From Petrolisthes cinctipes (taxonomy: Eukaryota > Arthropoda > Malacostraca > Decapoda > Porcellanidae): a DNA stretch of 64,000 nucleotides. Position numbers and translations under genes: made by a program. A model generated the notes under the pieces. That model did no database searches and had not been told where the DNA came from. It saw only the letters and a list, made by a program, of their open reading frames with translations. The stretch is taken from NCBI GenBank assembly GCA_033782935.1, contig JAWQEG010000166.1:710001-774000 (forward strand). Reading direction: 5' to 3'. This document shows, piece after piece, positions 1-64,000 of the stretch (position 1 is the stretch's first letter; each line of letters starts with the position of its first letter).

Positions 1-64
1 GGCACCTAAAATATCGAATTTCAGCATGTTTTGGGACTGTATATTGAAAATACTCTCACACGGA

Positions 65-152
65 GTAGGCATGTACAGATCGCCTCTGAGACCAAAAAAT
101 ATCGAATTTTTGGTGTTTAGAGCCTGAATTTGAGATATAAACGGGTACAGAA
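65..152 (+). repeat. A half-unit of the monomer (about 88 bp)
   Basis: First half of the monomer. Aligned with the B half from the shared CATG, without gaps, a typical A half matches its B half at 53 of 71 positions (75%, hand count). The shared blocks are CATG-ACA, ATCG, the GGG/ACC box, AAAATATCGA, TGTTTTG and GCCT, followed by an AT-rich tail. The A half is recognised by GTAGGCATGTACAG and by TATAAACGGG at its end. The most variable stretch follows the core, where TTTTCGGGTG, TTTTTGGGTG and TATCGGGTG forms distinguish monomer types within HOR units. Confidence 0.85.
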
Positions 153-239
153 GATGCATGCACATATCGACTTTGGGCACCAAAAATATCGATTTTTAGC
201 ATGCTTTGGGCCTATATTTTGAAGATATTCTAGCATTAA
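153..239 (+). repeat. B half-unit of the monomer (about 88 bp)
   Basis: Second half of the monomer, homologous to the A half but clearly diverged. It opens with GATGCATGCACATATCGAC or GATGCATACACATATTGAC, has the GGCACC box and the core AAATATCGATTTT, then AGCATGTTTTGGGCC and an AT-rich tail. The centre of the core, ATCGAT, is a perfect palindrome set in A/T tracts, giving an imperfect dyad of about 14 bp. Core-to-core spacing is 87 bp from A to B (99 to 186) and 88 bp from B to the next A (186 to 274), so the array also has an 88 bp half-period. Confidence 0.85.
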
Positions 240-1230
240 GTAGGTATGTACAGATCGCTTCTGGGACCCAAGAATATCGAATTTTCGAGTGTTTTTAACC
301 TGAATTTGAGATATAAACGGGTACAGAAGATGCATGCACATATCGACGTTTTGCACCTAAAATATCGATTTTGAGCATGTTTAGGGTCTGCATCTTGAAA
401 ACATTCTAGCAAGGAGTAGGCATGTACAGATCGCTTCTGGGACCCCAAAATATCGAATTTTCGGGTGTTTTGAGCCAGAATTTGGTATATAAACGGGTAC
501 AGAAGATACATACACATATTGACTTTTGGCACCTAAAATATCGAATTTTACCATGTTTTAGGCCTGTATTATGAAAATACTCTAACAGGGAGTAGGCATG
601 TACAGATCGCTTCTGGGACCAAAAAATATCGAATTTTCGGGTGTTTTGAGCCTGAATTCTAGATATAAACGGGTACAGAAGATGCATGCACATATCGACT
701 TTGGACACCTAAAATATCGATTTTTAGCATGTTTTGAGCCTATATTTTGAAAACATTCTAGAACTGAGTAGGCATATACAGATCGCTTCTGGGACTCAAA
801 AATATTAAATTTTCGAGTGTTTTGTGCCTGAATTTGAGATATAAACGGGTACAGAAGATAATTAACATATCGACTTTTTGCACCTAAAATATCGATTTTG
901 AGCATGTTTTGGGCCTATATTTTGGAAATTTTCTAGCACTGAGTAGGCATGTACAGATCGCTTCTGGGACCCAAAAATATCGGATTTTCGGGTGTTTTGA
1001 GCCTGAGTTTGGGATATAAACGGGTAAAGAAGATGCATACACATATTGACTTTGGGCACCTAAAATATCGAATTTTAGCATGTTTTAGGCCTGTATATTG
1101 AAAAAACTCTAAAACGGAGTAGGCATGTACAGATCGCTTCTGGGACCCAAAAATAGAGAATATTCGGGTGTTTTGAGCCTGAATTTGGGATATAAACGGG
1201 TACAGAAGATGCATACATATATTGACTTTG

Positions 1231-2460
1231 GGCACCTAAAATATCGAATTTCAGCATGTTTTGGGACTGTATATTGAAAATACTCTCACACGGAGTAGGC
1301 ATGTACAGATCGCCTCTGAGACCAAAAAATATCGAATTTTTGGTGTTTAGAGCCTGAATTTGAGATATAAACGGGTACAGAAGATGCATGCACATATCGA
1401 CTTTGGGCACCAAAAATATCGATTTTTAGCATGCTTTGGGCCTATATTTTGAAGATATTCTAGCATTAAGTAGGTATGTACAGATCGCTTCTGGGACCCA
1501 AGAATATCGAATTTTCGAGTGTTTTGAACCTGAATTTGAGATATAAACGGGTACAGAAGATGCATGCACATATCGACGTTTTGCACCTAAAATATCGATT
1601 TTTTGCATGTTTAGGGTCTGCATCTTGAAAACATTCTAGCAAGGAGTAGGCATGTACAGATCGCTTCTGGGACCCCAAAATATCGAATTTTCGGGTGTTT
1701 TGAGCCAGTATTTGGTATATAAACGGGTACAGAAGATACATACACATATTGACTTTTGGCACCTAAAATATCGAATTTTACCATGTTTTAGGCCTGTAAC
1801 TTGAAAATACTCTAACAGGGAGTAGGCATGTACAGATCGCTTCTGGGACCCAAAAATATCGAATTTTCGGGTGTTTTGATCCTGAATTCTAGATATAAAC
1901 GGGTACAGAAGATGCATGCACATATCGACTTTGGACACCTAAAATATCGATTTTTAGCATGTTTTGAGCCTATATTTTGAAAACATTCTAGAACTGAGTA
2001 GGCATGTACAGATCGCTTCTGGGACTCAAAAATATTAAATTTTCGAGTGTTTTGTGCCTGAATTTGAGATATAAACGGGTACAGAAGATAATTAACATAT
2101 CGACTTTTTGCACCTAAAATATCGATTTTGAGCATGTTTTGGGCCTATATTTTGGAAATTTTATAGCACTGAGTAGGCATGTACAGATCGCTTCTGGGAC
2201 CCAAAAATATCGGATTTTCGGGTGTTTTGAGCCTGAGTTTGGGATATAAACGGGTAAAGAAGATGCATACACATATTGACTTTGGGCACCTAAAATATCG
2301 AATTTTGGCATGTTTTAGGCCTGTATATTGAAAAATTTCTAAAACGGAGTAGGCATGTACAGATCGCTTCTGGGACCCAAAAATAGAGAATATTCGGGTG
2401 TTTTGAGCCTGAATTTGGGATATAAACGGGTACAGAAGATGCATACATATATTGACTTTG
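1231..2460. repeat. Block I HOR unit 2, 7 monomers (1,230 bp)
   Basis: Same m1-m7 order as unit 1, offset exactly 1,230 bp, with scattered single-base differences, for example GAGCCAGTATTTGG in m3 and TTTTGATCCTG in m4. It joins unit 3 with no loss of register. With unit 1 it defines the seven-monomer ground plan from which the longer and shorter block I units derive. Confidence 0.92.
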
Positions 2461-4218
2461 GGAACCTAAAATATCGAATTTCAGCATGTTTTGGGACTGT
2501 ATATTGAAAATACTCTCACACGGAGTAGCCATGTACAGATCGCCTCTGAGACCAAAAAATATCGAATTTTTGGTGTTTATAGCCTGAATTTGAGATATAA
2601 ACGGGTACAGAAGATGCATGCACATATCGACTTTGGGCACCAAAAATATCGATTTTTAGCATGCTTTGGGCCTATATTTTGAAGATATTCTAGCATTAAG
2701 TAGGTATGTACAGATCGCTTCTGGGACCCAAGAATATCGAATTTTCGAGTGTTTTGAACCTGAATTTGAGATATAATCGGGTACAGAAGATGCATGCACA
2801 TATCGACGTTTTGCACCTAAAATATCGATTTTGAGCATGTTTAGGGTCTGCATCTTGAAAACATTCTAGCAAAGAGTAGGCATGTACAGATCGCTTCTGG
2901 GACCCCAAAATATCGAATTTTCGGGTGTTTTGAGCCAGAATTTGGTATATAAACGGGTACAGAAGATACATACACATATTGACTTTTGGCACCTAAAATA
3001 TCGAATTTTACCAAGTTTTAGGCCTGTATTTTGAAAATACTCTAACAGGGAGTAGGCATGTACAGATCGCTTCTGGGACCCAAAAATATCGAATTTTCGG
3101 GTGTTTTGAGGCTGAATTTGAGATATAAATGGGCACAGAAGATGCATGCACATATTGACTTTGGGCACCTAAAATATCGAATTTCAGCATATTTTGGGCC
3201 TATATTTTGAAAATACTCTAACACGGAGTAGGCATGTACAGATCGCTCCTGGGACCCAAAAATATCGGATTTTCGGATGTTTTGAGCCTGAATTTAAGAT
3301 ATAAACGGGTACAGAAGATGCATGCTTATATCGACTTTTTGCTCCAAAAATATCAATTTTCAGAATGTTTTGGGTCTGTATCTTGAAAACATTCTAGAAC
3401 TGAGTAGGCATGTACAGATCGCTTATGGGACTCAAAAATATTAAATTTTCGAGTGTTTTGTGCCTGAATTTGAGATATAAATGGTTACAGAAGATACATA
3501 CACATATTGACTTTGGTCACCTAAAATATCGATTTTTAGCATGTTTTGGGCCTATATTTTGAAAATATTCTAGCACTGAGTAGGCATGTACAGATCGTTT
3601 CTGGGACCCAAAAATATCGAATTTTCGGGTGTTTTGAGCCTGAATTCTAGATATAAACGGGTACAGAAGATGCATGCACATAACGACTTTGGACACCTAA
3701 AATATCGATTTTTAGCATGTTTTGAGCCTATATTTTGAAAACATTCTAGAACTGAGTAGGCATGTACAGATCGCTTCTGGGACTCAAAAATATTAAATTT
3801 TCGAGTGTTTTGTGCCTGAATTTGAGATATAAACCGGTACAGAAGATAATTAACATATCGACTATTTGCACCTAAAATATCGATTTTGAGCATGTTTTGG
3901 GCCTATATTTTGGAAATTTTCTAGCACTGAGTAGGCATGTACAGATCGCTTCTGGGACCCAAAAATATCGGATTTTCGGGTGTTTTGAGCCTGAGTTTGG
4001 GATATAAACGGGTAAAGAAGATGCATACACATATTGACTTTGGGCACCTAAAATATCGAATTTTAGCATGTTTTAGGCCTGTATATTGAAAAAACTCTAA
4101 AACGGAGTAGGCATGTACAGATCGCTTCTGGGACCCAAAAATAGAGAATATTCGGGTGTTTTGAGCCTGAATTTGGGATATAAACGGGTACAGAAGATGC
4201 ATACATATATTGACTTTT
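2461..4218. repeat. Block I HOR unit 3, 10 monomers (1,758 bp)
   Basis: m1-m3 as in unit 1, then m4 is split by three extra monomers (3,052-3,579, 528 bp), then the rest of m4 and m5-m7. The monomer starting near 3,400 is a hybrid. Its A half has the m5 form (GAACTGAGTAGG, GACTCAAAAATATTAAA), where units 4 and 5 have CAAGGAGTAGGCATGTCTAG. Its B half has the expected ATGGTTACAGAAG form. m2 carries TATAATCGGG, shared with units 5 and the fragment at 55,235. Confidence 0.9.
3052..3579. repeat. Three-monomer insertion inside m4 of unit 3
   Basis: The distance between the two partial m4 copies flanking this stretch is exactly 528 bp, three monomers. The same insertion sits at 4,810-5,337 in unit 4 and 6,568-7,095 in unit 5, again 528 bp each. 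It brings monomers with GCTCCTGGGACC, with GATGCATGCTTATATCGAC and GCTCCAAAAATATC, and with ATGGTTACAGAAG and GGTCACC. It turns the 7-monomer unit into a 10-monomer unit. Its exact ends are uncertain within the m4 A half because the flanks are alike. Confidence 0.8.
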
Positions 4219-5976
4219 GGCACCTAAAATATCGAATTTCAGCATGTTTTGGGACTGTATATTGAAAATACTCTCACACGGAGTAGGCATGTACAGATCG
4301 CCTCTGAGACCAAAAAATATCGAATTTTTGGTGTTTAGAGCCTGAATTTGAGATATAAACGGGTACAGAAGATGCATGCACATATCGACTTTGGGCACCA
4401 AAAATATCGATTTTTAGCATGCTTTGGGCCTATATTTTGAAGATATTCTAGCATTAAGTAGGTATGTACAGATCGCTTCTGGGACCCAAGAATATCGAAT
4501 TTTCGAGTGTTTTGAACCTGAATTTGAGATATAAACGGGTACAGAAGATGCATGCACATATCGACGTTTTGCACCTAAAATATCGATTTTGAGCATGTTT
4601 AGGGTCTGCATCTTGAAAACATTCTAGCAAGGAGTAGGCATGTACAGATCGCTTCTGGGACCCCAAAATATCGAATTTTCGGGTGTTTTGAGCCAGAATT
4701 TGGTATATAAACGGGTACAGAAGATACATACACATATTGACTTTTGGCACCTAAAATATCGAATTTTACCATGTTTTAGGCCTGTATTTTGAAAATACTC
4801 TAACAGGGAGTAGGCATGTACAGATCGCTTCTGGGACCCAAAAATATCGAATTTTCGGGTGTTTTGAGGCTGAATTTGAGATATAAATGGGCACAGAAGA
4901 TGCATGCACATATTGACTTTGGGCACCTAAAATATCGAATTTCAGCATGTTTTGGGCCTATATTTTGAAAATACTCTAACACGGAGTAGGCATGTACAGA
5001 TCGCTCCTGGGACCCAAAAATATCGGATTTTCGGGTGTTTTGAGCCTGAATTTAAGATATAAACGGGTACAGAAGATACATGCTTATATCGACTTTTTGC
5101 TCCAAAAATATCAATTTTCAGAATGTTTTGGGTCTGTATCTTGAAAACATTCTAGCAAGGAGTAGGCATGTCTAGATTGCTTCTGGGACCCAAAAATATA
5201 GAATTTTTGGGTGTTTTGAGCCTGAATTTGGGATATAAATGGTTACAGAAGATACATACACATATTGACTTTGGTCACCTAAAATATCGATTTTTAGCAT
5301 GTTTTGGGCCTATATTTTGAAAATATTCTAGCACTGAGTAGGCATGTACAGATCGTTTCTGGGACCCAAAAATATCGAATTTTCGGGTGTTTTGAGACTG
5401 AATTCTAGATATAAACGGGTACAGAAGATGCATGCACATATCGACTTTGGACACCTAAAATATCGATTTTTAGCATGTTTTGAGCCTATATTTTGAAAAC
5501 ATTCTAGAACTGAGTAGGCATGTACAGATCGCTTCTGGGACTCAAAAATATTAAATTTTCGAGTGTTTTGTGCCTGAATTTGAGATATAAATGGGTACAG
5601 AAGATAATTAACATATCGACTTTTTTCACCTAAAATATCGATTTTGAGCATGTTTTGGGCCTTTATTTTGGAAATTTTCTAGCACTGAGTAGGCATGTAC
5701 AGATCGCTTCTGGGACCCAAAAATATCGGATTTTCGGGTGTTTTGAGCCTGAGTTTGGGATATAAACGGGTAAAGAAGATGCATACACATATTGACTTTG
5801 GGCACCTAAAATATCGAATTTTGGCATGTTTTAGGCCTGTATATTGAAAAAACTCTAAAACGGAGTAGGCATGTACAGATCGCTTCTGGGACCCAAAAAT
5901 AGAGAATATTCGGGTGTTTTGAGCCTGAATTTGGGATATAAACGGGTACAGAAGATGTATACATATATTGACTTTG
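4219..5976. repeat. Block I HOR unit 4, 10 monomers (1,758 bp)
   Basis: Ten-monomer form, offset 1,758 bp from unit 3 and from unit 5, with the 528 bp insertion at 4,810-5,337. Here the monomer at about 5,160 keeps GGCATGTCTAGATTGC and AAATATAGAATTTTTGG, unlike the patched version in unit 3. m5 has ATGGGTACAG for the usual ACGGGTACAG, and m7 ends in GATGTATACATAT. Confidence 0.9.
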
Positions 5977-7734
5977 GGCACCTAAAATATCGAATTTCAG
6001 CATGTTTTGGGACTGTATATTGAAAATACTCTCACACGGAGTAGGCATGTACAGATCGCCTCTGAGACCAAAAAATATCGAATTTTTGGTGTTTAGAGCC
6101 TGAATTTGAGATATAAACGGGTACAGAAGATGCATGCACATATCGACTTTGGGCACCAAAAATATCGATTTTTAGCATGCTTTGGGCCTATATTTTGAAG
6201 ATATTCTAGCATTAAGTAGGTATGTACAGATCGCTTCTGGGACCCAAGAATATCGAATTTTCGAGTGTTTTGAACCTGAATTTGAGATATAATCGGGTAC
6301 AGAAGATGCATGCACATATCGACGTTTTGCACCTAAAATATCGATTTTGAGCATGTTTAGGGTCTGCATCTTGAAAACATTCTAGCAAGGAGTAGGCATG
6401 TACAGATCGCTTCTGGGACCGCAAAATATCGAATTTTCGGGTGTTTTGAGCCAGAATTTGGTATATAAACGGGTACAGAAGATACATACACATATTGACT
6501 TTTGGCACCTAAAATATCGAATTTTACCATGTTTTAGGCCTGTATTTTGAAAATACTCTAACAGGGAGTAGGCATGTACAGATCGCTTCTGGGACCCAAA
6601 AATATCGAATTTTCGGGTGTTTTGAGGCTGAATTTGAGATATAAATGGGCACAGAAGATGCATGCACATATTGACTTTGGGCACCTAAAATATCGAATTT
6701 CATTATGTTTTGGGCCCATATTTTGAAAATACTCTAACACGGAGTAGGCATGTACAGATCGCTCCTGGGACCCAAAGATATCGGATTTTCGGGTGTTTTG
6801 AGCCTGAATTTAAGATATAAACGGGTACAGAAGATGCATGCTTATATCGACTTTTTGCTCCAAAAATATCAATTTTCAGAATGTTTTGGGTCTGTATCTT
6901 GAAAACATTCTAGCAAGGAGTAGGCATGTCTAGATTGCTTCTGGGACCCAAAAATATCGGATTTTCGGGTGTTTTGAGCCTGAATTTGGTATATAAATGG
7001 TTACAGAAGATACATACACATATTGACTTTGGTCACCTAAAATATCGATTTTTAGCATGTTTTGGGCCTATATTTTGAAAATATTCTAGCACTGAGTAGG
7101 CATGTACAGATCGTTTCTGGGACCAAAAAATATCGAATTTTCGGGTGTTTTGAGCCTGAATTCTAGATATAAACGGGTACAGAAGATGCATGCACATATC
7201 GACTTTGGACACCTAAAATATCGATTTTTAGCATGTTTTGAGCCTATATTTTGAAAACATTCTAGAACTGAGTAGGCATGTACAGATCGCTTCTGGGACT
7301 CAAAAATATTAAATTTTCGAGTGTTTTGTGCCTGAATTTGAGATATAAACGGGTACAGAAGATAATTAACATATCGACTTTTTGCAACTAAAATATCGAT
7401 TTTGAGCATGTTTTGGGCCTATATTTTGGAAATTTTCTAGCACTGAGTAGGCATGTACAGATCGCTTCTGGGACCCAAAAATATCGGATTTTCGGGTGTT
7501 TTGAGCCTGAGTTTGGGATATAAACGGGTAAAGAAGATGCATACACATATTGACTTTGGGCACCTAAAATATCGAATTTTAGCATGTTTTAGGCCTGTAT
7601 ATTGAAAAAACTCTAAAACGGTGTAGGCATGTACAGATCGCTTCTGGGACCCAAAAATAGAGAATATTCGGGTGTTTTGAGCCTGAATTTGGGATATAAA
7701 CGGGTACAGAAGATGCATACATATATTGACTTTG
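5977..7734. repeat. Block I HOR unit 5, 10 monomers (1,758 bp)
   Basis: Ten-monomer form with the insertion at 6,568-7,095. It carries GGGACCGCAAAATATCG in m3 (about 6,416), where other block I units have GGGACCCC, and TATAATCGGG in m2. Both markers recur together in the displaced fragment at 54,935-56,423, which ties that fragment to this unit or a close relative. The monomer near 6,920 has AAATATCGGATTTTCGGG and GAATTTGGTATATAAATGG, another A-half variant at the position that differs among units 3, 4 and 5. Confidence 0.9.
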
Positions 7735-9315
7735 GGCACCTAAAATATCGAATTTCAGCATGTTTTGGGACTGTATATTGAAAATACTCTCACACGGAGT
7801 AGGCATGTACAGATCGCCTCTGAGACCAAAAAATATCGAATTTTTGGTGTTTAGAGCCTGAATTTGAGATATAAACGGGTACAGAAGATGCATGCACATA
7901 TCGACTTTGGGCACCAAAAATATCGATTTTTAGCATGCTTTGGGCCTATATTTTGAAGATATTCTAGCATTAAATAGGTATGTACAGATCGCTTCTGGGA
8001 CCCAAGAATATCGAATTATCGAGTGTTTTGAACCTGAATTTGAGATATGAACGGGTACAGAAGAAGCATGCACATATCGACGTTTTGCACCTAAAATATC
8101 GATTTTGAGCATGTTTAGGGTCTGCATCTTGAAAATATTCTAGCAAGGAGTAGGCATGTACAGATCGCTTCTGGGACCCCAAAATATCGAATTTTCGGGT
8201 GTTTTGAGCCAGAATTTGGTATATAAACTGGTACAGAAGATACATACACATATTGACTTTTGGCACCTAAAATATCGAATTTTACCATGTTTTAGGCCTG
8301 TAATTTGAAAATACTCTAACAGGGAGTAGGCATGTACAGATCGCTTCTGGGACCCAAAAATATCGAATTTTCGGGTGTTTTGAGCCTGAATTCTAGAAAT
8401 AAACGGGTACATAAGATGCATGCACATATCGACTTTGGACACCTAAAATATCGATTTTTAGCATGTTTTGAGCCTATATTTTGAAAACATTCTAGAACTG
8501 AGTAGGCTTGTACAGATCGCTTCTTTGACTCAAAAATATTAAATTTTCGAGTGTTTTGTGCCTGAATTTGAGATATAAACGGGTACAGAAGATAATTAAC
8601 ATATCGACTTTTTGCACCTAAAATATCGATTTTGAGCATGTTTTGGGCCTATATTTTGGAAATTTTCTAGCACTGAGTAGGCATGTACAGATCGCTTCTG
8701 GGACCCAAAAATATCGAATTTTCGGGTGTTTTGAGCCTGAATTTGGTATATAAACGGGTACAGAAGATGCATGCACATATCGACTTTGGACACCTAAAAT
8801 ATCGATTTTTAGCATGTTTTGAGCCTATATTTTGAAAACATTCTAGAACTGAGTAGGCATGTACAGATCGCTTCTGGGACTCAAAAATATTAAATTTTCG
8901 AGTGTTTTGTGCCTGAATTTGAGATATAAACGGGTACAGAAGATAATTAACATATCGACTTTTTGCACCTAAAATATCGATTTTGAGCATGTTTTGGGCC
9001 TATATTTTGGAAATTTTCTAGCACTGAGTAGGCATGTACAGATCGCTTCTGGGACCCAAAAATATCGGATTTTCGGGTGTTTTGAGCCTGAGTTTGGGAT
9101 ATAAACGGGTAAAGAAGATGCATACACATATTGACTTTGGGCACCTAAAATATCGAATTTTAGCATGTTTTAGGCCTGTATATTGAAAAAACTCTAAAAC
9201 GGAGTAGGCATGTACAGATCGCTTCTGGGACCCAAAAATAGAGAATATTCGGGTGTTTTGAGCCTGAATTTGGGATATAAACGGGAACAGAAGATGCATA
9301 CATATATTGACTTTT
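7735..9315. repeat. Block I HOR unit 6, 9 monomers (1,581 bp)
   Basis: Seven-monomer plan without the 528 bp insertion, but with a two-monomer (351 bp) tandem duplication of the m5-m6 stretch: 8,431-8,781 and 8,782-9,132. The marker GACTTTGGACACC starts both copies. The first m6 A half after 8,700 is hybrid: it has GAATTTTCGGGTG and GAATTTGGTATAT where an ordinary m6 has GGATTTTCGGGTG and GAGTTTGGGATAT, so the exchange left a new junction monomer. Confidence 0.9.
8431..9132. repeat. Two-monomer (351 bp) tandem duplication in unit 6
   Basis: Two copies of 351 bp, each starting at GACTTTGGACACC and containing the GACTCAAAAATATTAAA and GATAATTAACATATCG markers of m5. The copies match closely except in the last A half, where the first is the junction monomer. 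This accounts exactly for the difference between the 1,581 bp unit and the 1,230 bp plan. The dimer involved, m5-m6, is also missing from a later HOR copy near 49,145. Confidence 0.85.
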
Positions 9316-10545
9316 GGCACCTAAAATATCGAATTTCAGCATGTTTTGGGACTGTATATTGAAAATACTCTCACACGGAGTAGGCATGTACAGATCGCCT
9401 CTGAGACCAAAAAATATCGAATTTTTGGTGTTTTGAGCCTGAATTTGAGATATAAACGGGTACAGAAGATGCATGCACATATCGACTTTGGGCACCAAAA
9501 ATATCGATTTTTAGCATGCTTTGGGCCTATATTTTGAAGATATTCTAGCATTAAGTAGGTATGTACAGATCGCTTCTGGGACCCAAGAATATCGAATTTT
9601 CGAGTGTTTTGAACCTGAATTTGAGATATGAACGGGTACAGAAGATGCATGCACATATCGACGTTTTGCAACTAAAATATCGATTTTGAGCATGTTTAGG
9701 GTCTGCATCTTGAAAACATTCTAGCAAGGAGTAGGCATGTACAGATCGCTTCTGGGACCCCAAAATATCGAATTTTCGGGTGTTTTGAGCCAGAATTTGG
9801 TATATAAACGGGTACAGAAGATACATACACATATTGACTTTTGGCACCTAAAATATCGAATTTTACCATGTTTTAGGCCTGTAATTTGAAAATACTCTAA
9901 CAGGGAGTAGGCATGTACAGATCGCTTCTGGGACCCAAAAATATCGAATTTTCGGGTGTTTTGAGCCTGAATTCTAGATATAAACGGGTACAGAAGATGC
10001 ATGCACATATCGACTTTGGACACCTAAAATATCGATTTTTAGCATGTTTTGAGCCTATATTTTGAAAACATTCTAGAACTGAGTAGGCATGTACAGATCG
10101 CTTCTGGGACTCAAAAATATTAAATTTTCGAGTGTTTTGTGCCTGAATTTGAGATATAAACGGGTACAGAAGATAATTAACATATCGACTTTTTGCACCT
10201 AAAATATCGATTTTGAGCATGTTTTGGGCCTATATTTTGGAAATTTTCTAGCACTGAGTAGGCATGTACAGGTCGCTTCTGGGACCCAAAAATATCGGAT
10301 TTTCGGGTGTTTTGAGCCTGAGTTTGGGATATAAACGGGTAAAGAAGATGCATACACATATTGACTTTGGGCACCTAAAATATCGAATTTTAGCATGTTT
10401 TAGGCCTGTATATTGAAAAAACTCTAAAACGGAGTAGGCATGTACAGATCGCTTCTGGGACCCAAAAATAGAGAATATTCGGGTGTTTTGAGCCTGAATT
10501 TGGGATATAAACGGGTACAGAAGATGCATACATATATTGACTTTG
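9316..10545. repeat. Block I HOR unit 7, 7 monomers (1,230 bp)
   Basis: Return to the plain m1-m7 plan at exactly 1,230 bp. m1 has GTGTTTTGAGCC where nearly all other m1 copies have GTGTTTAGAGCC. m2 has GATATGAACGGG, shared with units 6 and 8, which suggests these three units are close relatives. Confidence 0.92.
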
Positions 10546-40164: not shown

Positions 40165-40178
40165 TTTAGGCACCTAAT

Positions 40179-53100: not shown

Positions 53101-53686
53101 GGTGTTTTAAGCCTGAATTTAAGATATAAACGGGTACAGAAGATGCATGCTTATATCGACTTTTTGCACCAAAAATATCAATTTTCAGATTGTTTTGGGT
53201 TTGTATCTTGATAACATTCTAGCAAGGAGTAGGCATGTCTAGATTGCTTCTAGGACCAAAAAATATCGAATTTTTGGTGTTTAGAGCCTGAATTTGAGAT
53301 ATAAACGGGTACAGAAGATGCATGCACATATCGACTTTAGGAACCAAAAATATCGATTTTTAGCATGCTTTGGGCTTATATATAAAGATATTCTAGCATT
53401 AAGTAGGTATGTACAGATCGCTTCTGGGACCCAAAAATATCGAATTTTCGAGTGTTTTGAACCTGAATTTGAGATATAAACGGGTACAGAAGATCCATGC
53501 ACATATCGACTTTTTGCACCTAAAATATCGATTTTGAGCATGTTTAGGGTCTGCATCTTGAAAACATTCTAGCAAGGAGTAGGCATGTACAGATCGCTTC
53601 TGGGACCCAAAAATATCGAAGTATCGGGTGTTTTGAGCCTTAATTTGGGATATAAACGGGTACAGAAGATGCATACACATATTGAC
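50172..53686. repeat. Block VI HOR unit 2, 20 monomers (3,515 bp)
   Basis: From the TTTAGGCACC marker at 50,172 to the next at 53,687. It holds a GGCAGGTGCCGATCTC monomer (50,244), CATTCAACCAAGGAG (50,580), the block I m1-m2 pair (50,998-51,300), the GATGCTGCTTATATCG monomer (51,737) and the m4-m6-like trio (52,470-52,830). Compared with unit 1 it keeps the m5-m6 dimer and has only one GATCGTCTCTGGG monomer. Confidence 0.78.
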
Positions 53687-54934
53687 TTTAGGCACCTAAT
53701 ATATCGATTTTTAGCATGTTTTGCGCCTTTATTTTAAAAATACTCGAACACGGAGTAGGCAGGTGCCGATCTCTTCTGGGACCCAAAAATATCGATTTTT
53801 TTCATATGTTTTGAGCCTGAATTCGAGATATAAACGGGTACAGAAGATGCATGCACATATCGACTTTGGACACCTAAAATATCGATTTTTAGCATGTTTT
53901 GTGCCAATATTTTGAAAACATTCTAGAACTGAGTAGGCATGTACAGATCGCTTATGGGACCCAAAAATATCGAATTTTCGGGTGTTTTGAGCCTGAATTT
54001 AAGATATAAACGGGTACAGAAGCGGCATGCTTATATTGACTTTTTGCACCAAAAATATCGATTTTCAGAATGTTTTGGGTCTGTATCTTGAAAACATTCA
54101 ACCAAGGAGTACAGATTGCTTCTGGGACCCTAAAATATAGAATTTTCGGGTGTATTGAGCCTGAATTTGGTATATAAACGGGTACAGAAGATACATACAC
54201 ATATTGACTTTTGGCACCTAAAATATCGAATTTTACCATGGTTTGGGCCTATATTTTGAAAATATTCTAGCACTGAGTAGGCATGTACAGATCGCTTCTG
54301 GGACCCAAATATATCGAATTTTTGGGTGTTTTGAGCCTGAATTTGGGATATAAACGGGTACAGAAGATGCATGCACATATTGACTTTGGGCACCTAAAAT
54401 ATCGAATTTCTGCATGTTTTGGGCCTGTATTTTGAAAATACTCTAACACGGAGTAGGCATGTACAGATCGCTTCTGGGACCCAAAAATATCGAATTTTCG
54501 GGTGTTTTGAGCTTGAATTCGAGATATAAACGAGTACAAAAGATGAATGCACATATTGCCTTTGGACACCTAAAATATTGATTTTTAGCATGTTTTGAGC
54601 CTATATTTTGAAAACATTATAAAACTGAGTAGGCATGTACAGATCATTTCTGGGACCCAAAAATATTGAATTTTCGGGTGTTTAGAGCCTGAATTTGAGA
54701 TATAAACGGGTACAGAAGATGCATTCACATATCGACTTTGGGCACCAAAAATATCGATTTTTAGCTTGTTTTGGGCCTATATTTTGAAAATATTCTAGCA
54801 CTGAGTAGGCATGTACAGATCGCTTCTGGGACCCAAAAATATCGAATTTTCGGGTTGTTAGAGCCTGAATTTGGGATATAAACGGGTACAGAAGATGCAT
54901 ACATATATTGACTTTGGGCACCTAAAATATCGAT
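53687..54934. repeat. Block VI partial unit 3
   Basis: About seven monomers that repeat 50,172 onward at offset 3,515 (GGCAGGTGCCGATCTC at 53,759; CATTCAACCAAGGAG at 54,096), then drift. At 54,109 eight bases of the A box are missing (GGAGTACAGATTGC), although its parent at 50,590 still has them, so the loss came after the duplication. The block ends where the block I-like fragment begins. Confidence 0.75.
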
Positions 54935-56423
54935 TTTCAGCATGTTTTGGGACTGTATATTGAAAATACTCTCACACGGAGTAGGCATGTACAGATCGCC
55001 TCTGAGACCAAAAAATATCGAATTTTTGGTTTTTAGAGCCTGAATTTGAGATATAAACGGGTACAGAAGATGCATGCATGCACATATCGACTTTGGGCAC
55101 CAAAAATATCGATTTTTAGCATGCTCTGGGCCTATATTTTGAAGATATTCTAGCATTAAGTAGGTATGTACAGATCGCTTCTGGGACCCAAGAATATCGA
55201 ATTTTCGAGTGTTTTGAACCTGAATTTGAGATATAATCGGGTACAGAAGATGCATGCACATATCGACGTTTTGCACCTAAAATATCGATTTTGAGCATGT
55301 TTAGGGTCTGCATCTTGAAAACATTCTAGCAAGGAGTAGGCATGTACAGATCGCTTCTGGGACCGCAAAATATCGAATTTTCGGGTGTTTTGAGCCAGAA
55401 TTTGGTATATAAACGGGTACAGAAGATACATACACATATTGACTTTTGGCACCTAAAATATCGAATTTTACCTTGTTTTAGGCCTGTATTTTGAAAATAC
55501 TCTAACAGGGAGTAGGCATGTACAGATCGCTTCTGGGACCCAAAAATATCGAATTTTCGGGTGTTTTGAGGCTGAATTTGAGATATAAATGGGCACAGAA
55601 GATGCATGCACATATTGACTTTGGGCACCTAAAATATCGAATATTAGCATGTTTTGGGCCTATATTTTGAAAATACTCTAACACGGAGTAGGCATGTACA
55701 GATCGCTCCTGGGACCCAAAAATATCGGATTTTCGGGTGTTTTGAGCCTGAATTTAAGATATAAACGGGTACAGAAGATGCATGCTTATATCGACTTTTT
55801 GCTCCAAAAATATCAATTTTCAGAATGTTTTGGGTCTGTATCTTGAAAACATTCTAGCAAGGAGTAGGCATGTCTAGATTGCTTCTGGGACCCAAAAATA
55901 TAGAAGTTTTGGGTGTTTTGAGCCTGAATTCTAGATATAAACGGGTACAGCAGATGCATGCACATATCGACTTTGGACACCTAAAATATCGATTTTTAGC
56001 ATGTTTTGAGCCTATATTTTGAAAACATTCTAGAACTGAGTAGGCATGTACAGATCGCTTCTGGGACTCAAAAATATTAAATTTTCGAGTGTTTTGTGCC
56101 TGAATTTGAGATATAAACGGGTACAGAAGATTATTAACATATCGACTTTTTGCACCTAAAATATCGATTTTGAGCATGTTTTGGGCCTATATTTTGGAAA
56201 TTTTCTAGTACTGAGTAGGCATGTACAGATCGCTTCTGGGACCCAAAAATATCGGATTTTCGGGTGTTTTGAGCCTGAGTTTGGGATATAAACGGGTAGA
56301 GAAGATGCATACACATATTGACTTTGGGCACCTAAAATATCGAATATTCGCATGTTTTAGGCCTGTATATTGAAAAAACTCTAAAACGGAGTAGGCATGT
56401 ACAGATCGCTTCTGGGACCCAAA
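54935..56423. repeat. Block VII, displaced block I fragment (about 1.49 kb)
   Basis: m1, m2, m3, m4 and the insertion-type monomers of block I reappear, in block I order. Private markers of unit 5 are present together: GGGACCGCAAAATATCG (55,360; unit 5 6,416) and TATAATCGGG (55,234; unit 5 6,290). The offset is 48,940 to about 55,070, 48,944 after a 4 bp insertion, and 48,768 after a one-monomer (176 bp) deletion near 55,925. These offsets are 278.5 and 277.5 monomers, the half coming from the break at 12,195. The longest open frame of the window (171 codons, 54,761-55,276, minus) arises from the 4 bp insertion. Confidence 0.85.
55071..55082. other. Four-base tandem insertion (GCAT)
   Basis: TGCATGCATGCA replaces the usual TGCATGCA. 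The result is a perfect 12 bp palindrome, extended from the 8 bp palindrome present in many B halves. Simple slippage explains it. It is the only copy of this insertion I found. Confidence 0.85.
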
Positions 56424-57200
56424 AATATCGAATTTTCGGGTGTTTTGAGCCTGAATTTGAGATATAAACGGGTACAGAAGATGCATGCTTATATCGACTT
56501 TTTGCACCAAAAATATTAATTTTCAGTATGTTTTGGGTCTGTATCTTGAAAACATTCTAGCAAGGAGTAGGCATGTCTAGATTGCTTCTGGGACCCAAAA
56601 ATATAGAATTTTCGGGTGTTTTGAGCCTGAATTTGGGATATAAACGATTACAGAAGATGCATACATATATTGACTTTGGGAACATAAAATATCGAATTTC
56701 AGCATGTTTTGAGACTGTATATTGAAAATACTCTAACACGGAGTAGGTATGTACAGATCGCCTCTAAGACCAAAAAATATCGATTTTTTGATGTTTAGAG
56801 CCTGAATTTGAGATATAAACGGGTACATAAGATGCATGCACATATCGACTTTCGGCACCAAAAATATCGATTTTTAGCATGCTTTGGGCCTATATTTAAA
56901 GATATTCTAGCATTAAGTAGGTATATACAGATCGCTTCTGGGACCCAAAATTATCGAATTTTCGAGTGTTTTGAACCTGAATTTGAGATATAAACGGGTA
57001 CAGAAGATGCATGCACATATCGACTTTTTGCACCTAAAATATCGATTTTGAGCATGTTTAGGGTCTGCATCTTGAAAACATTCTAGTAAGGAGTAGGCAT
57101 GTACAGATCGCTTCTGGGACCTAAAAATATCGAAGTATCGGGTGTTTTGAGCCTGAATTTGGGATATAAACGGGTACAGAAGATGCATACACATATTGAC
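56424..57200. repeat. Block VIII start, block V-like monomers
   Basis: About four monomers: GATGCATGCTTATATCG and CAGTATGTTTTGGG, GGCATGTCTAGATTGC, then block V-like GCCTCTAAGACC with GATGTTTAGAGCC, and the GGTATATACAGATCGC and TTATCGAATTTTCG pair. Similar to 28,600-29,090 but with more private substitutions than the block V copies have among themselves (for example AAACGATTACAG, GGAACATAAAATATCG). Confidence 0.7.
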
Positions 57201-60200
57201 TTTAGGCACCTAATATATCGATTTTTAGCATGTTTTGCGCCTTTATTTTAAAAATATTCTAGCACTGAGTAGGCATGTACAGATCGTTTCTGGGACCCAA
57301 AAATATAGAATTTTCGGGTGTTTTGAGCCTGAGTTTGGGATAAAAACGGGTAAAGAAAATGCATAAACATATTGATTTTGGGCACCTAAAATATCGAATT
57401 TTAGCATGTTTTAGGCCTGTATTTTGAAAATTCTCTAACACGGAGTAGACATGTACAGATCGCTTCTGGGACCCCAAATAAATCGAATTTTTGGGTGTTT
57501 TGAGCCTGAATTTGAAATATAAACGGGTACAGAAGATACATGCACATATTGACTTTTTGCACCTAAAATATCGAATTTCAGCATGTTTTGGGCCTGTATT
57601 TTTAAAATACTCTAACACGGAGAAGGCAGGGGCCGATCTCTTCTGGGACCCAAAAATATCGATTTTTTAGTATGTTTTGAGCCTGAATTCGAGATATAAA
57701 CCGGTACAGAAGATGCATGCACATATCGACTTTGGACACCTAAAATATCGATTTTTAGCATGTTTTGAGCCAATATTTTGAAAACATTCTAGAACTGAGT
57801 AGGCATGTACAGATCGCTTCAGGGACCCAAAAATATCGGATTTTCGGGTGTTTTGAGCCTGAGTTTGGGATATAAACGGGTAAAGAAGATGCTTACACAT
57901 ATTGACTTTGGGCACCTAAAATATCGAATTTCAGCATGTTTTAGGTCTGTATTTTAAAAATACTCTAACAGGGAGTAGGCATGTACAGATCGCTTATGGG
58001 ACCCAAAAATATCGGATTTTCGGGTGTTTTGAGCCTGAATTTGAGATATAAACGGGTACAGAAGAGGCATGCTTATATCGACTTTTTGCACCAAAAATAT
58101 CGATTTTCAGAATGTTTTGGGTCTGTATCTTGAAAGCATTCTAGCAAGGAGTAGGCATGTATAGATTGCTTCTGGGACCCTAAAATATAGAATTTTCGGG
58201 TGTTTTGAGCCTGAATTTGGTATATAAACGGGTACAGAAGATACATACACATATTGACTTTTGGCACCTAAAATATCGAATTTTACCATGTTTTGGGCCT
58301 ATGTTTTGAAAATTTTCTAGCACTGAGTAGGCATGTACAGATCGCTTCAGGGACCAAAAAATATCGAATTTTCGGGTTGTTTTGAGCCTAAATTTGGGAT
58401 ATAAACGGGTACAGAAGATGCATACACATATTGACTTTGGGCACCAAAAATATCGATTTTTAGCATGCTTTGGGCCTATATTTTGAAGATATTCTAGCAC
58501 TGAGTAGGCATGTACAGATCGCTTCTGGGACCCAAAAATATCAAATTTTCGAGTGTTTTGAACCTGATTTTGAGATATAAAAGGGTACAGAAGATGCATG
58601 CACATATTGACTTTGGGCATCTAAAATATCGATTTTTAGCATGTTTTAGGACTATATTTTGAAAATATTCTAGCACGGAGTAGGCATGTACAGATCGCTT
58701 CTGGGACCCAAAAATATCGAATTTTCGGGTGTTTTGAGCCTGAGTTTGGAATATAAACGGGTAAAGAAAATGCATACACATATTGATTTTTGGCACCTAA
58801 AATATCGAATTTCAGCATGTTTTAGGCTTGCTATTTTGAAAATACTCTAACACGGAGTAGGCATGTACAGATCGCTTCTGGGACCCAAAAATATCGAAGT
58901 TTCGGGTGTTTTGAGCCTGAATTTGAGATATAAACGGGTTCAGAAGATGCATGCAGATATTGACTTTGGGCACCTAAAATATCGAATTTCAGCATGTTTT
59001 TGGCCTGTATTTTGAAAATACTCTAACACGGAGTAGGCATGTACAGATCGCTTCTGGTACCCAAAAATATCGAAGTTTCGGGTGTTTTGAGCCTCAATTT
59101 GGGATATAAACGGGTACAGTAGATGCATACACATATTGACTTTAGGCACCTAAAATATCGATTTTGAGCATGTTTTGGGCCTATATTCTGAAAATATTCT
59201 AGCCCGGAGTAGGCATGTACAGATCGCATCTGGGACCCAAAAATATTGAATTTTCGGGTGTTTTGAGCCTGAGTTTGAAATATAAACGGGTAAAGAAAAT
59301 GCATACATATATTGACTTTTGGCACCTAAAATATCGAATTTCAGCATGTTTTAGGCCTGTATTTTGAAAATACTCTAACACGGAGTAGGCATGTACAGAT
59401 CGCTTCTGGGACCCAAAAATATCGAATTTTCGGGTGTTTTGAGCCTGAATTTGAGATATAAACGGGTACAGAAGATGCATGCATATATTTACTTTTGGCA
59501 CCTAAAATATCGAATTTCAGCATGTTTTTGGCCTGTATTTTAAAAATACTCTAGCACTGGGTAGGCATGTACAGATCGCTTCTGGGACCCAAAAATATCG
59601 AATTTTCGAGTGTTTTGAACCTAAATTTGAGATATAAACGGGTACAGAAGATGCATGCACATATTGACTTTTTGCACCTAAAATATCGATTTTGAGCATG
59701 TTTATTGTCTGTATCTTGAAAACATTCCAGCAAGGAGTAGGCATGTACAGATCGCTTCTGGGACCCAAAATTAGCGAATTTTTGGGTGTTTTGAGTCTTA
59801 ATTTGAGATATAAACGGGTTCAGAAGATGCATGCATATATCGACTTTGGGCACCCAAAATATCGATTTTGAGCATGTTTTGGGAATGTATTTTGAAAATA
59901 CTCTAACACGGAGTAGGCATGTGTAGATCGCTTCTGGGACACAAACATATCGAAATTTCGGGTGTTTTGAGCCTGAAATTGAGATATAAACGGGTACAGA
60001 AGATGAATGCACGTATCGACTTTGCGCACCCAAAATATCGATTTTTAGCATTTTTTGGCCATATATCTTGAAAATATTCTAGCACTGAGTAGGCATGTAC
60101 AGATAGCTTCTGGGACCCAAAAATATCGAATTTTCGGGATTTTTGAGCCTTAATTTTGGTTATAAACGTGTACAGAATATGCATGCACATATCGACATTG

Positions 60201-62308
60201 GGCACATAAGATATCGATTTTTAGCATGTTTTTGGCCTATATTTTGAAAATATTCTAGCACTGAGTAGGCATGTACAGATTACTTCTGGGACCCAAAAAA
60301 TATCGAATTTTCGGGTGTTTTGAGCCTGAATTTGGTATATAAACGGGTACAGAAGATACATACACATATTGACTTAGGCACCTAAAATATCGAATTTTAC
60401 CATGTTTTGGGCCTTCATTTTGAAAATATTCTAGCACTGAGTAGGCATGTACAGATCGCTTCTGGGACCCAAAAATATCGAATTTTCAGGTGTTTTGAGC
60501 CTGAATTTGGGATATAAACAGGTACAGAAGATGCATGCACATATTGACTTTGGGCACCTAAAATATCGAATTTCAGCATGTTTTGGGCCAGTATTTTTAA
60601 AATACTCTAACACGGAGAAGGCAGGTGCCGATCTCTTCTGGGACCCAAAAATATCGATTTTTTCGTATGTTTTGAGCCTGAATTCGAGATATAAACGGGT
60701 ACAGAAGATGCATGCACATATCGACATTGGACACCTAAAATATCGATTTTTAGCATGTTTTGAGCCAATATTTTGAAAACATTCTAGAACTGAGTAGGCA
60801 TGTACAGATCGCTTTTGGGACCCAAAAATATCGGATTTTTGGGTGTTTTGAGCCTGAGTTTGGGATATAAACGGGTACAGAAGATGCTTACACATATTGA
60901 CTTTGGGCACCTAAAATATCGAATTTCAGCATGTTTTAGGTCAGTATTTTGAAAATACTCTAACAGGGAGTAGGCATGTACAGATCGCTTATGGGACCCA
61001 AAAATATCGGATTTTTGGGTGTTTTGAGCCTGAATTTAAGATATAAACGGGTAAAGAAGATCCATGCTTATATCGACTTTTTGCACAAAAAATATCGATT
61101 TTTAGAATGTTTTAGGTCTGTATCTTGAAAACATTCTAGCAAGGAGTAGGCATGTACAGATTGCTTCTGGGACCTAAAAATATAGAATTTTCAGGTGTTT
61201 TGAGCCTGAATTTGGGATATAAACGGGTACAGAAGATACATACATATATTGACTTTCGGCACCTAAAATATCGATTTTCAGCATGTTTTGGAACTGTATT
61301 TTGAAAATACTCTATCACAGAGTAGGCATGAACAGATCGCCTCTGGGACCAAAAAATATCGAATTTTTGGGTGCTTAGAGCCTGAATTTGAGATATAAAC
61401 GGGTACAGAAGATGCATGCACATATCGACTTTGGGCACCAAAAATATCGATTTTTAGCATGCTTTGGGCCTATATTTTGAAGATATTCTAGCACTGAGTA
61501 GGCATGTACAGATCGCTTCTGGGACCCAAAAATATCGAATTTTCGGGTGTTTTGAGCCTGAATATGAGATATAAACGGGTACAGAAGATGCATACACATA
61601 TTGACTTTGGGCATCTAAAATATCGAATTTCAGCATGTTTTGGGCCTGTATTTTAAAAAATACTCTAACAGGGAGTAGGCATGTACAGATCGCTTCTGGG
61701 ACCCAAAAATATCGAATTTTCGGGTGTTTTGAGCCTGAATATGAGATATAAACGGGTACAGAAGATGCATACATATATTGACTTTGGGCACCTAAAATAT
61801 CGAATTTCAGCATGTTTTGGGACTGTATATTGAAGATACTCTAACACGGAGTAGGTATGTACAAATCGCCTCTGAGACCAAAAAATATCGAATTTTTGGT
61901 GTTTAGAGCCTGAATTTGAGATATAAACGGGTACAGAAGATGCATGCACATATCGACTTTGGGCACCAAAAATATCGATTTTTAGCATGCTTTGGGCCTA
62001 TATTTGAAGATATTCTAGCATTAAGTAGGTATGTACAGATCGCTTCTGGGACCCAAAAATATCGAATTTTCGAGTGTTTTGAACCTGAATTTGAGATATA
62101 AACGGGTACAGAAAATGCATGCACATATCGACTTTTTGCACCTAAAATATCGATTTTGAGCATGTTTACGGTCTGCATCTTGAAAACATTCTAGCAAGGA
62201 GTAGGCATGTACAGATCGCTTCTGGGACCCAATAATATCGAAGTATCGGATGTTTTGAGCCTGAATTTGGGATATAAACGGGTACAGAAGATGCATACAC
62301 ATATTGAC
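57201..62308. repeat. Block VIII, diverged satellite, 29 monomers
   Basis: No full HOR copy is repeated here. Monomers have many private changes, most marked at 58,800-60,250 (CTTGCTATTTTG, GGTACCCAAAAATATCG, TTAGCGAATTTTTGG, GTGTAGATCGC, GGTTATAAACGTG, GCACATAAGATATCG). GGCAGG-type monomers at 57,627 and 60,620 and the following two monomers resemble those in blocks III and VI. 61,080-62,308 is closer to blocks III-V (GTGCTTAGAGCC, GGGACTGTATATTG) and looks younger. No interruption of the 176 bp phase. Confidence 0.75.
59802..60326. repeat. Old three-monomer duplication, left copy
   Basis: About 525 bp that match 63,325-63,849 at offset 3,523 (20 monomers). Shared oddities: ACGGGTTCAGAAG, GGGAATG, GGCATGTGTAGATCGC, GGGACACAAACATATCG, GCCTTAATTTTGGTTATAAACG and GTACAGAATATGCATGC. 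The copies differ at many places (for example TTTCGGGTGTTTTG against TTTAGGGTGTCTTG), so this duplication is much older than those of blocks III-V. Confidence 0.8.
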
Positions 62309-64000
62309 TTTACGCACCTAATATATCGATTTTTAGCATGTTTTGTGCCTTTATTTTAAAAATATTCTAGCACTGAGTAGGCATGTACAGATCGCTCCTG
62401 GGACCCAAAAATATAGAATTTTCTGGTGTTTTGAGCCTGAGTTTGGGATATAAACGGGTACAGAAGATGCATGCACACATTGACTTTGGGCACCTAAAAT
62501 ATCGAATTTTTTAGCATGTTTTGGGCCTGTATTTTGAAAATACTCTAACACGGAGTAGGCAGGTACCGATCTCTTCTGGGACCCAAAAATATCGATTTTT
62601 TTGTATGTTTTGAGCCTGAACTCGAGATATAAACGGGTACATAAGATGCATGCACATATCGACTTTGGACACCTAAAATATCGATTTTTAGCATGTTTTG
62701 AGCCAATATTTTGAAAACATTCTAGAACTGACTAGGCATGTACAGATCGCTTCTGGGACCCAAAAATATCGGATTTTCGGGTGTTTTGAGCCTGAGTTTG
62801 GGATATAAACGGGTAAAGAAGATGCTTACACATATGGACTTTGGGCACCTAAAATATCGAATTTCAGCATGTTTTAGGTCTGTATTTTGAAAATACTCTA
62901 ACAGGGAGTAGGCATGTACAGATCAATTATGGGACCCAAAAATAACGGATTTTCGGGTGTTTTGAGCCTGAATTTAAGATATAAACGGGTACAGAAGAGG
63001 CATGCTTATATCGACTTTTTGCACCAAAAATATCGATTTTCAGAATGTTTTGGGTCTGTATCTTGAAAACATTCTAGCAAGGAGTAGGCATGTATAGATT
63101 GCTTCTGGGACCCTAAAATATAGAATTTTCGGGTGTTTTGAGCCTGAATTTGGTATATAAACGGGTACAGAAGATACATACACATATTGACTTTTGGCAC
63201 CTAAAATATCTAATTTTACCATGTTTTGGGCCTATATTTTGAAAATATTCTAGCACTGAGTAGGCATGTACAGATCGCTTCAGGGACCCAAAAATATCGA
63301 ATTTTCGGGTGTTTTGAGCCTGAATTTGAGATATAAACGGGTTCAGAAGATTCATGCATATATCGACTTTGGGCACCCAAAATATCGATTTTGAGCATGT
63401 TTTGGGAATGCATTTTGAAAATACTCTAACACGGAGTAGGCATGTGTAGATCGCTTCTGGGACACAAACATATCGAAATTTAGGGTGTCTTGAGCCTGAA
63501 ATTGAGATATAAACGGGTACAGAAGATGTATGCACATATCGACTTTGGACACTTTAATTATTGATTTTTAGCATGATTTGAGCCTATTTTTTGAAAAAGA
63601 TCAAGCACTGAGTAGGCATGTACAGATCTCTTCTGGGACCCAAAACAATCGAATTTTCGGGATTTTTGAGCCTTAATTTTGGTTATAAACGTGTACAGAA
63701 TATGCATGCACATATCGACTTTGGGCACATAAGATATCGATTTTTAGCATGTTTTTGGCCTATATTTTGAAAATATTCTAGCACTGAGTTGGCATGTACA
63801 GATTACTTCTGGGACCCAAAAAATATCGAATTTTCGGGTGTTTTGAGCGTGAATCTGGGATATAAACTGGTACAGAAGATGCATAAACATATTGACTTTA
63901 GCCACCTAAAAATTAGTTTTTCAGCATGTTTTGGGCCTGTTTTTTTTAAATGCTCTAACTAGGAGTAGGCATGTACAGATCGCTTCTTGGACACAAAAAT
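62309..64000. repeat. Block VIII end, diverged satellite to the window edge
   Basis: Starts with a variant marker (TTTACGCACCTAATATATCG). 62,540-63,220 matches 57,607-58,290 at offset 4,933 (28 monomers): GGTACCGATCTC, GAACTGA-TAGG, GGCATGTATAGATTGC. 63,325-63,849 is the right copy of the old three-monomer duplication. The last monomers are the most worn: CACTTTAATTATTGATTTT (63,550), GAAAAAGATCAAGCACTG (63,593) and AAAAATTAGTTTTTCAGC (63,908). The satellite continues past the end. Confidence 0.75.

What the first reader, a model, noticed from the sequence alone, without database searches (positions are those of the whole stretch)
1..64000. Unrecognised 176 bp satellite with multi-scale higher-order repeats over at least 64 kb
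The window is pure satellite, one orientation, without a single transposon, and with HOR units of 5.5, 6, 7, 9, 10, 11, 17-20 and 24 monomers, some nested. Seen in sequence: period, order and offsets. Known: HOR arrays of this sort mark active centromeres in several plants and animals. Inferred: that this array is centromeric. I do not recognise the monomer as CEN180, CentO, CentC, CentBr or alpha satellite, so the family may be undescribed.
Basis: partly seen in the sequence, partly recalled or inferred. Interest (0 to 1): 0.8.

Follow-up and report, generated by a model that had tools for sequence, protein, structure and literature searches.

The report
Giant unannotated porcelain-crab satellite DNA
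The window is a small piece of a 176-base tandem repeat that runs for megabases and seems to make up roughly a quarter of the genome of a porcelain crab, where the published annotation lists almost no satellite DNA; whether it marks centromeres is not known.

Summary
The window is uninterrupted 176-bp satellite: 365 monomers, one strand, no insert seen. Blocks are copied locally in register: 88 high-identity runs against 0-3 in 20 order shuffles. Only units of about 5.5, 6, 7 and 10 monomers reach two copies; those of 9, 11, 18-20, 24 and 45 have fewer, and the last ~19 kb has few.

The window lies in a 4.44-Mb contig that is satellite at 32 of 33 points sampled from 90 kb to 3.9 Mb. The host is almost certainly the porcelain crab Petrolisthes cinctipes. 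Two k-mers counted genome-wide and scaled by local density give about 410-416 Mb, near 28% of the assembly. The genome paper reports under 1 Mb of satellites and 806 Mb of unclassified repeats, and credits interspersed repeats for the size gap to its sister species.

This is ordinary satellite biology (recombination-driven turnover, inferred) at unusual scale, overlooked. Centromere function is untested. Four short pieces of the monomer occur in no held paper.

The parts
1..64000 (+). 176-bp satellite array (365 monomers), part of a ~3.8-Mb satellite region on contig C166
   Evidence: extent beyond the window
1..2990 (+). 7-monomer higher-order unit (1,230 bp), 2.4 copies, 98.7% identical
   Evidence: monomers 0-16; end estimated from the monomer positions
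1934..8261 (+). 10-monomer higher-order unit (1,758 bp), 3.6 copies, 98.5% identical
   Evidence: monomers 11-46; end estimated from the monomer positions
8789..12126 (+). 7-monomer higher-order unit, 2.7 copies, 99.3% identical; a 7-monomer block with matching monomers recurs on contig C125
11318..12984 (+). 5.5-monomer offset (966 bp), up to 99.1% identical over 700 bp; a shift of phase by half a monomer
12127..12214 (+). single 88-bp half monomer that explains the half-integer offsets
14676..22941 (+). 24-monomer duplication (4.2 kb), 1.96 copies, 99.8% identical
   Evidence: end estimated from the monomer positions
22766..25405 (+). 7-monomer higher-order unit, 2.1 copies, 99.4% identical
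25406..39640 (+). 45-monomer duplication (7.9 kb), 1.8 copies, 98.9% identical, overlapping 11-, 15-, 18-, 19- and 26-monomer duplications
   Evidence: end estimated from the monomer positions
40169..42277 (+). 6-monomer higher-order unit, 2 copies, 99.6% identical
   Evidence: end estimated from the monomer positions
45328..63939 (+). stretch with few long duplications, in which the 88-bp half-monomer period is visible to Tandem Repeats Finder

Best explanation
This is the major satellite DNA of a porcelain crab, almost certainly Petrolisthes cinctipes: a 176-bp AT-rich monomer that is itself a diverged dimer of two ~88-bp subunits. It forms megabase arrays and fills about 28% of the assembly. 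Shown here: tandem arrangement, extent on two contigs, local in-register duplications, inserts and a strand switch at one array edge, and a very high copy number. Inferred: the arrays grow and turn over by recombination between misaligned monomers (unequal sister exchange or break-induced replication), which keeps making short-lived local HOR blocks and clears inserts from the array body, while inserts and inversions persist at the edges. Also inferred: the arrays are constitutive heterochromatin, most likely pericentromeric, with centromere seeding a possibility for part of them.
For: Tandem, one strand, no insert seen in 64 kb. 88 duplication runs against 0-3 in shuffles. The 13 half-integer offsets found (up to 59.5 monomers, best place of each) all pair sequence left of the half monomer with the stretch just right of it, starting at 12.26-12.39 kb in 7 and 14.03-14.06 kb in 6, as one phase shift would give; the rest are whole monomers. 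Monomer halves align with 64 identical columns, score 92 (best of 88 rotations) against 26 +/- 7, maximum 46, for 200 shuffles at that rotation. C166: all 7 points at 90-110 kb and all 16 points from 120 kb to 3.8 Mb are satellite on +; of 9 points at 3.81-3.89 Mb, 8 are satellite on + and the one at 3.81 Mb is not; 3.9 Mb is satellite on -. The strand switches near 3,896,420 and the last satellite ends near 3,910,786. In 16.6 kb fetched at that edge lie four 459-483-bp inserts with ~30-bp inverted ends, three of them 99.4-99.8% identical and so apparently copied with the satellite. C125: 17 of 17 points from 200 kb to 3.5985 Mb are satellite. Abundance: 834,517 exact hits of a 24-mer and 455,251 of a 28-mer, 0 for reversed controls; scaled by densities in sampled arrays they give 416 Mb and about 410 Mb (my arithmetic). 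Host: 1.484 Gb in 9,385 contigs against 1.49 Gb in 9,391 in the paper; cox1 copies 15,395-15,396 bp apart against 15,324 and 15,348 bp for two Porcellanidae and 16.3 kb or more for the eight other Anomura whose sizes stand in the passage seen.
Against: The host is inferred from statistics, not from a named record; the gill DNA carried much non-target sequence. The contig sample is too small to test abundance alone (3 of 39 points satellite, length-weighted 37%, bootstrap 0-66%). Density scaling varies by sample: 290-479 Mb for the 24-mer, 228-569 Mb for the 28-mer. A floor of one 147-bp monomer per 24-mer hit is 123 Mb. Local duplication is weaker in places: four 3-kb samples of C3 reach only 0.93-0.95 identity at their best offset, and five of sixteen 4-kb pieces of the window stay below 0.93. 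Heterochromatin and chromosomal position are not shown by any search.
Confidence: 0.82

Rival explanations
1. The array is the functional centromere: HOR blocks of this satellite carry CENP-A and the rest is flanking pericentromere, as with human alpha satellite.
For: HOR blocks with 98-100% identity, one family seen on seven contigs (C166, C125 and C128, C3, C400 and C1200, C450), an edge with inserts and an inversion. A crayfish satellite sits at the probable pericentromeres of all chromosomes (passages of PMC7859515).
Against: No HOR was seen to run through an array: none of 138 monomers sampled in ten groups elsewhere on C166 has a >=98% partner in the window (monomers with 10 or more gaps were left out). 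No CENP-B box above controls. The amount, about 28% of the assembly, is far beyond kinetochore need. The position on chromosomes is unknown.
Confidence: 0.3
2. The satellite belongs to a contaminating animal in the gill sample (for example a parasitic crustacean), not to the crab.
For: Only 9,391 of 21,161 primary contigs survived the authors' filtering. The host was inferred here, and the 18S gene on C166 could not be assigned to a taxon with these tools.
Against: The authors kept only contigs covered by 10x reads from claw muscle of what appears to be another specimen, and with 0.33-3 times arthropod depth. A repeat of ~400 Mb in a contaminant would need a second genome at host-like coverage. 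C166 itself carries coding-like stretches with SNF, ankyrin and cold-shock domains, and a repeat at 3.99 Mb resembles one on contig C10 (by eye); neither names the animal.
Confidence: 0.06
3. The abundance is inflated by assembly: both haplotypes kept, or false duplication of arrays.
For: C125:404,001-412,000 matches the window monomer by monomer (median 99.4%, 84% of 44 monomers at >=98%) with recurring monomers in a similar order, as an allele might.
Against: Further along, C125 matches the window at only ~92-97% and then falls to 88-89%, and it shows a 13-monomer unit besides the 7-monomer one, so it is not a simple duplicate. Even a two-fold inflation leaves ~200 Mb.
Confidence: 0.15

Closest known systems
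TmSat1/TmSat2 of Tribolium madens (PMC13081366; passages seen, abstract among them)
   Same: Satellites from one ~110-bp element fill 38% of a genome in megabase regions, with orientation switches.
   Different: The C3 switch junction tested here occurs once in the genome, whereas the beetle's inversion sites recur thousands of times. C166 samples keep one strand for megabases. The organisms are unrelated; the monomers were not compared.
Human alpha satellite (recalled)
   Same: ~170-bp AT-rich monomer, local HOR blocks, array edges with transposons.
   Different: No array-wide HOR seen; monomers of different contigs are nearly as alike as those within one; no CENP-B box signal.
Satellites of the crayfish Pontastacus leptodactylus, e.g. 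PlSAT3-411 (PMC7859515; passages seen)
   Same: Decapod with satellites at 27.5% of the genome; an AT-rich probably pericentromeric satellite.
   Different: There 258 families share this, minisatellites holding 24.7%; PlSAT3-411 is 1.29%. Here a single conventional satellite holds a comparable share.
Unclassified repeats of the Petrolisthes cinctipes assembly (PMC10849366; outline with abstract, sections 5 and 6, part 1 of 2 of section 9, and passages seen)
   Same: Very probably the same DNA: 806 Mb unclassified in that assembly.
   Different: The paper counts satellites under 1 Mb and speaks of interspersed repeats; by the estimate here about half of that amount is tandem.

Membership tests
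Satellite DNA | Long head-to-tail arrays of one monomer | tested here: met
   for the window; sampled points over ~3.8 Mb of C166 and 3.4 Mb of C125
Satellite DNA | High copy number in the genome | tested here: met
   834,517 exact 24-mer hits, 0 for the reversed control; 455,251 hits of a second k-mer
Higher-order-repeat satellite | Multi-monomer unit repeated at least twice at much higher identity than between monomers | tested here: met
   units of 6, 7 and 10 and 5.5 against mean monomer identity 0.870
Higher-order-repeat satellite | One HOR homogenised through the array, as in alpha satellite | tested here: not met
   Units change every few kb; 0 of 138 monomers from elsewhere on C166 are >=98% identical to one of the window
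Centromeric satellite | CENP-A chromatin on the repeat | not testable with these tools
   no chromatin data
Centromeric satellite | One block at the primary constriction of each chromosome | not testable with these tools
   unscaffolded contigs, no cytogenetics
CENP-B-box satellite | NTTCGNNNNANNCGGGN in the monomer (motif recalled) | tested here: not met
   best 7 of 9 in the consensus; 20 of 60 letter-permuted motifs do as well or better; 0 full matches in the window, and 0 for each of 8 permuted motifs
Tribolium-type macro-dyad satellite | Recurrent conserved inversion junctions | tested here: inconclusive
   C3 junction pattern: 1 exact hit in the genome, against it; the C166 junction query did not complete and other junctions were not looked for
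CEN180, CentO, CentC, CentBr, alpha satellite | Sequence identity to the family | not tested
   no satellite library or nt available; the host is an animal by its mitochondrial code, which makes the plant families unlikely

The most novel reading that the evidence does not exclude
Amplification, or filtering, of this one satellite explains most of the published 0.57-Gb difference in assembly length between the sister species Petrolisthes cinctipes and P. manimaculis (unclassified repeats 806 against 329 Mb). Either the family expanded by ~400 Mb in P. cinctipes alone while coding genes diverged only moderately, or the unclassified 33%-GC contigs that the authors removed from P. manimaculis as an 'unknown epibiont' were its own satellite and the difference is partly an artefact. 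Either way the 'interspersed repeats' explanation in print would be wrong.
Probability: 0.5. Interest if true: 0.68.

Novelty: new member of a known kind. Interest (0 to 1): 0.52.

Why it matters
If the estimate holds, about a quarter of a published crab genome is one unannotated satellite. It would be a ready handle on decapod heterochromatin and centromeres, and a natural experiment in genome-size change between close relatives living side by side. The HiFi contigs span megabases of satellite, so the spectrum of local duplications can be read directly. It is also a practical warning: a standard repeat pipeline can put hundreds of megabases of tandem DNA under 'unclassified' repeats.

Tried and rejected
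CENP-B box: 7 of 9 positions in the consensus, but 20 of 60 letter-permuted controls reach 7 or more; rejected. One variant on C3 looked like a full match by eye; it was not pursued.

Exceptional hairpin structure: a 351-bp stretch of the window folds with z = -1.26, 12 of 100 shuffles as stable; rejected.

Conserved inversion sites as in Tribolium: the C3 junction is unique; the C166 junction query did not complete, so this is open for other sites.

Array-specific subfamilies: mean identity between loci is 0.84-0.93 and within loci 0.835-0.946, so none is evident at the level of average monomers; local private HORs do exist. Monomers with 10 or more gaps, including the 147-bp variant, were dropped from these two comparisons.

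C125 as simple allele of the window: 99% locally, 92-97% and then 88-89% further on; undecided.

Satellite in other organisms: the 24-mer is absent from IMG/VR contigs (the tool says that records of the window's own genome may be left out). No other animal genome was at hand. Genome-wide searches for 18S (RF01960) and rbcL (PF00016) did not complete. A first wide paper search gave one unrelated fish paper; PMC10454600 was seen in passages and not used for a claim.
Full report
What is in the window. Identity at lag 176 is 0.698, then 352 (0.571) and 88 (0.559). Tandem Repeats Finder covers the whole window with a 176-bp unit. A wrap-around alignment gives 365 monomers with mean identity 92% to the consensus on the + strand; three spacings depart from 176 by more than 4 bp, one 88-bp half monomer (12,127) and two of 168 bp. 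G+C is 37.1% and CpG observed/expected is 0.89, so CpG is hardly depleted. The two halves of the monomer align with 64 identical columns (score 92, best of 88 rotations; 200 shuffles at that rotation 26 +/- 7, maximum 46), so 176 bp looks like a diverged dimer of ~88 bp.

Higher-order structure. In the monomer identity matrix, 88 diagonal runs of at least four monomers reach 96.5% (one weaker monomer allowed); 20 shuffles of monomer order gave 0-3. Units with two or more full copies are 6, 7 (three places) and 10 monomers and, if its stretch is continuous, 5.5 monomers. Those of 9, 11, 18, 19, 20, 24 and 45 monomers have 1.6-1.96 copies in their best run and are better called duplications. Thirteen half-integer offsets were found; in each, the best place pairs sequence left of the half monomer with the ~2.5 kb just right of it (second copy starting at 12.26-12.39 kb in 7 and 14.03-14.06 kb in 6), as one shift of phase would give. 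From about 45 kb on, long duplications are rare. Other parts of the satellite behave alike with other units: best offsets of 1,414 to 2,197 bp at 97-100% in five of five 4-kb samples of C166, and 2,284 bp on C125; but four 3-kb samples of C3 reach only 93-95%, and five of sixteen 4-kb pieces of the window stay below 93%.

Where it lies. The window is C166:710,001-774,000 of a 1.484-Gb genome in 9,385 contigs. C166 has 4,444,514 bases. Of 33 points sampled from 90 kb to 3.9 Mb, 32 are satellite; the exception is at 3.81 Mb. All are on + except the one at 3.9 Mb. The strand changes near 3,896,420 and the last satellite piece ends near 3,910,786. In the 16.6 kb fetched at this edge lie four 459-483-bp inserts with ~30-bp inverted ends, three of them 99.4-99.8% identical and hence apparently amplified with the satellite, and a 732-bp insert whose ends look inverted by eye. 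Beyond the edge there are coding-like stretches with cold-shock (3.96 Mb), ankyrin (3.97 Mb) and sodium:neurotransmitter symporter (4.44 Mb) domains. On the left, a full-length 18S rRNA gene lies on the minus strand at C166:9,243-11,306 (1,696 bits) and a GAG-pre-integrase fragment at 84 kb. Parts of that end are withheld, so whether the array borders a nucleolus organiser or a stray 18S copy is open. On contig C125 (3.6 Mb), 3 of 3 points up to 100 kb are not satellite and 17 of 17 from 200 kb to 3.5985 Mb are, one of them (2.0 Mb) on the other strand.

Whose genome. cox1 reads with TGA as tryptophan, and cox1 is followed by cox2 and then nad3 (my reading of the frames). Copies stand 15,395-15,396 bp apart. 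A table in PMC9956181 gives 15,324 and 15,348 bp for two Porcellanidae and more than 16.3 kb for the eight other Anomura visible in the passage. The Petrolisthes cinctipes paper (PMC10849366) reports 9,391 contigs and 1.49 Gb, from hifiasm on HiFi reads. I take the host to be P. cinctipes with about 95% confidence; no record name was seen.

How much there is. The 24-mer CATGTACAGATCGCTTCTGGGACC has 420,474 + 414,043 exact hits and none for the reversed control. Its density is 2.17/kb in the window, 1.90 in five C166 samples, 1.74 over the first 100 listed hits on C3 and 2.88 on C125; pooled, this gives 416 Mb or 28.0% (single-sample range 290-479 Mb). These samples were not drawn at random. 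A 28-mer from another part of the monomer has 455,251 hits; with pooled density 222 per 199.7 kb (counts, arithmetic mine) it gives about 410 Mb (single-sample range 228-569). One 147-bp monomer per 24-mer hit gives a floor of 123 Mb. A sample of contigs, one point each at 20 kb, was satellite in 3 of 39 (a fortieth contig was too short), length-weighted 37% with bootstrap 0-66%: compatible, but no test.

Variants and turnover. At four of five other C166 samples, on C3 and on C400, a 147-bp variant lacking 29 bp between two ATAT tetramers is mixed with the long one; none was found in the window. A 27-mer across that deletion has 75,879 hits in the genome. Mean identity between loci (0.84-0.93) is nearly as high as within them (0.835-0.946), yet 0 of 138 monomers from other C166 samples have a >=98% partner in the window, while 84% of 44 monomers from C125:404-412 kb do, in a similar order, with a 13-monomer unit beside the 7-monomer one. 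Further along, C125 resembles the window at 92-97% and then at 88-89%. So the family is shared between contigs while HOR blocks are local and young, as expected from frequent local unequal exchange. That is an inference from pattern; no rate was measured.

What the literature held says. The P. cinctipes paper counts satellites below 1 Mb, unclassified repeats at 806 Mb against 329 Mb in P. manimaculis, and its abstract credits interspersed repeats for the length difference. The present estimate is about half of the 806 Mb and near the 477-Mb difference. The same paper removed from P. manimaculis unclassified contigs making an odd GC peak near 0.33, thought to be an epibiont. A giant satellite would look like that too, though this satellite has 37% G+C; untested. 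A precedent for one family at about a third of a genome exists in a beetle (TmSat1 33%, passages of PMC13081366).

Verdict. A real, very abundant satellite family, undescribed as far as could be searched, with ordinary recombination-type HOR blocks. New as a family and notable for its scale in a decapod; not a new kind of system. Centromere function is possible (about 0.3) and untested.

Noticed in passing
C166:9,243-11,306 (L137:3243-5306, minus): Full-length eukaryotic 18S rRNA gene on the same contig, about 80 kb left of the array; whether it is part of an rDNA array could not be seen.
   Followed up: partly
L135:1340-1822, 3062-3542, 4254-4712; L134:6949-7430 and 1526-2257 (C166 right edge): MITE-like inserts with terminal inverted repeats inside the satellite at the array edge; three copies are nearly identical and seem to have been amplified with the satellite.
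   Followed up: partly
L040, L042, L043, L044 (C166), L012, L019, L030 (C3), L059 (C400): A 147-bp monomer variant with a 29-bp deletion between ATAT tetramers is mixed with the 176-bp monomer but was not found in the window; its length equals a nucleosome core, perhaps by chance.
   Followed up: partly
C3:1,539,480 (L009, L177) and C166:3,896,420 (L134): Points where the satellite changes strand; the C3 junction is unique in the genome.
   Followed up: partly
L055 (C40:20,001-21,000) and L089 (C166:4,000,001-4,000,500): Other tandem repeats with different, more GC-rich units, seen by eye.
   Followed up: no
C4313:109,287-171,153: Five cox1 copies, three on minus about 15.4 kb apart and two on plus, which looks like a concatenated mitochondrial genome with a strand change; C452 (two) and C237 (one) carry further cox1 copies that were not examined.
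   Followed up: no
PMC10849366, Assembly section: The authors removed unclassified contigs of ~33% GC from the P. manimaculis assembly; these may deserve a check for satellite DNA.
   Followed up: no
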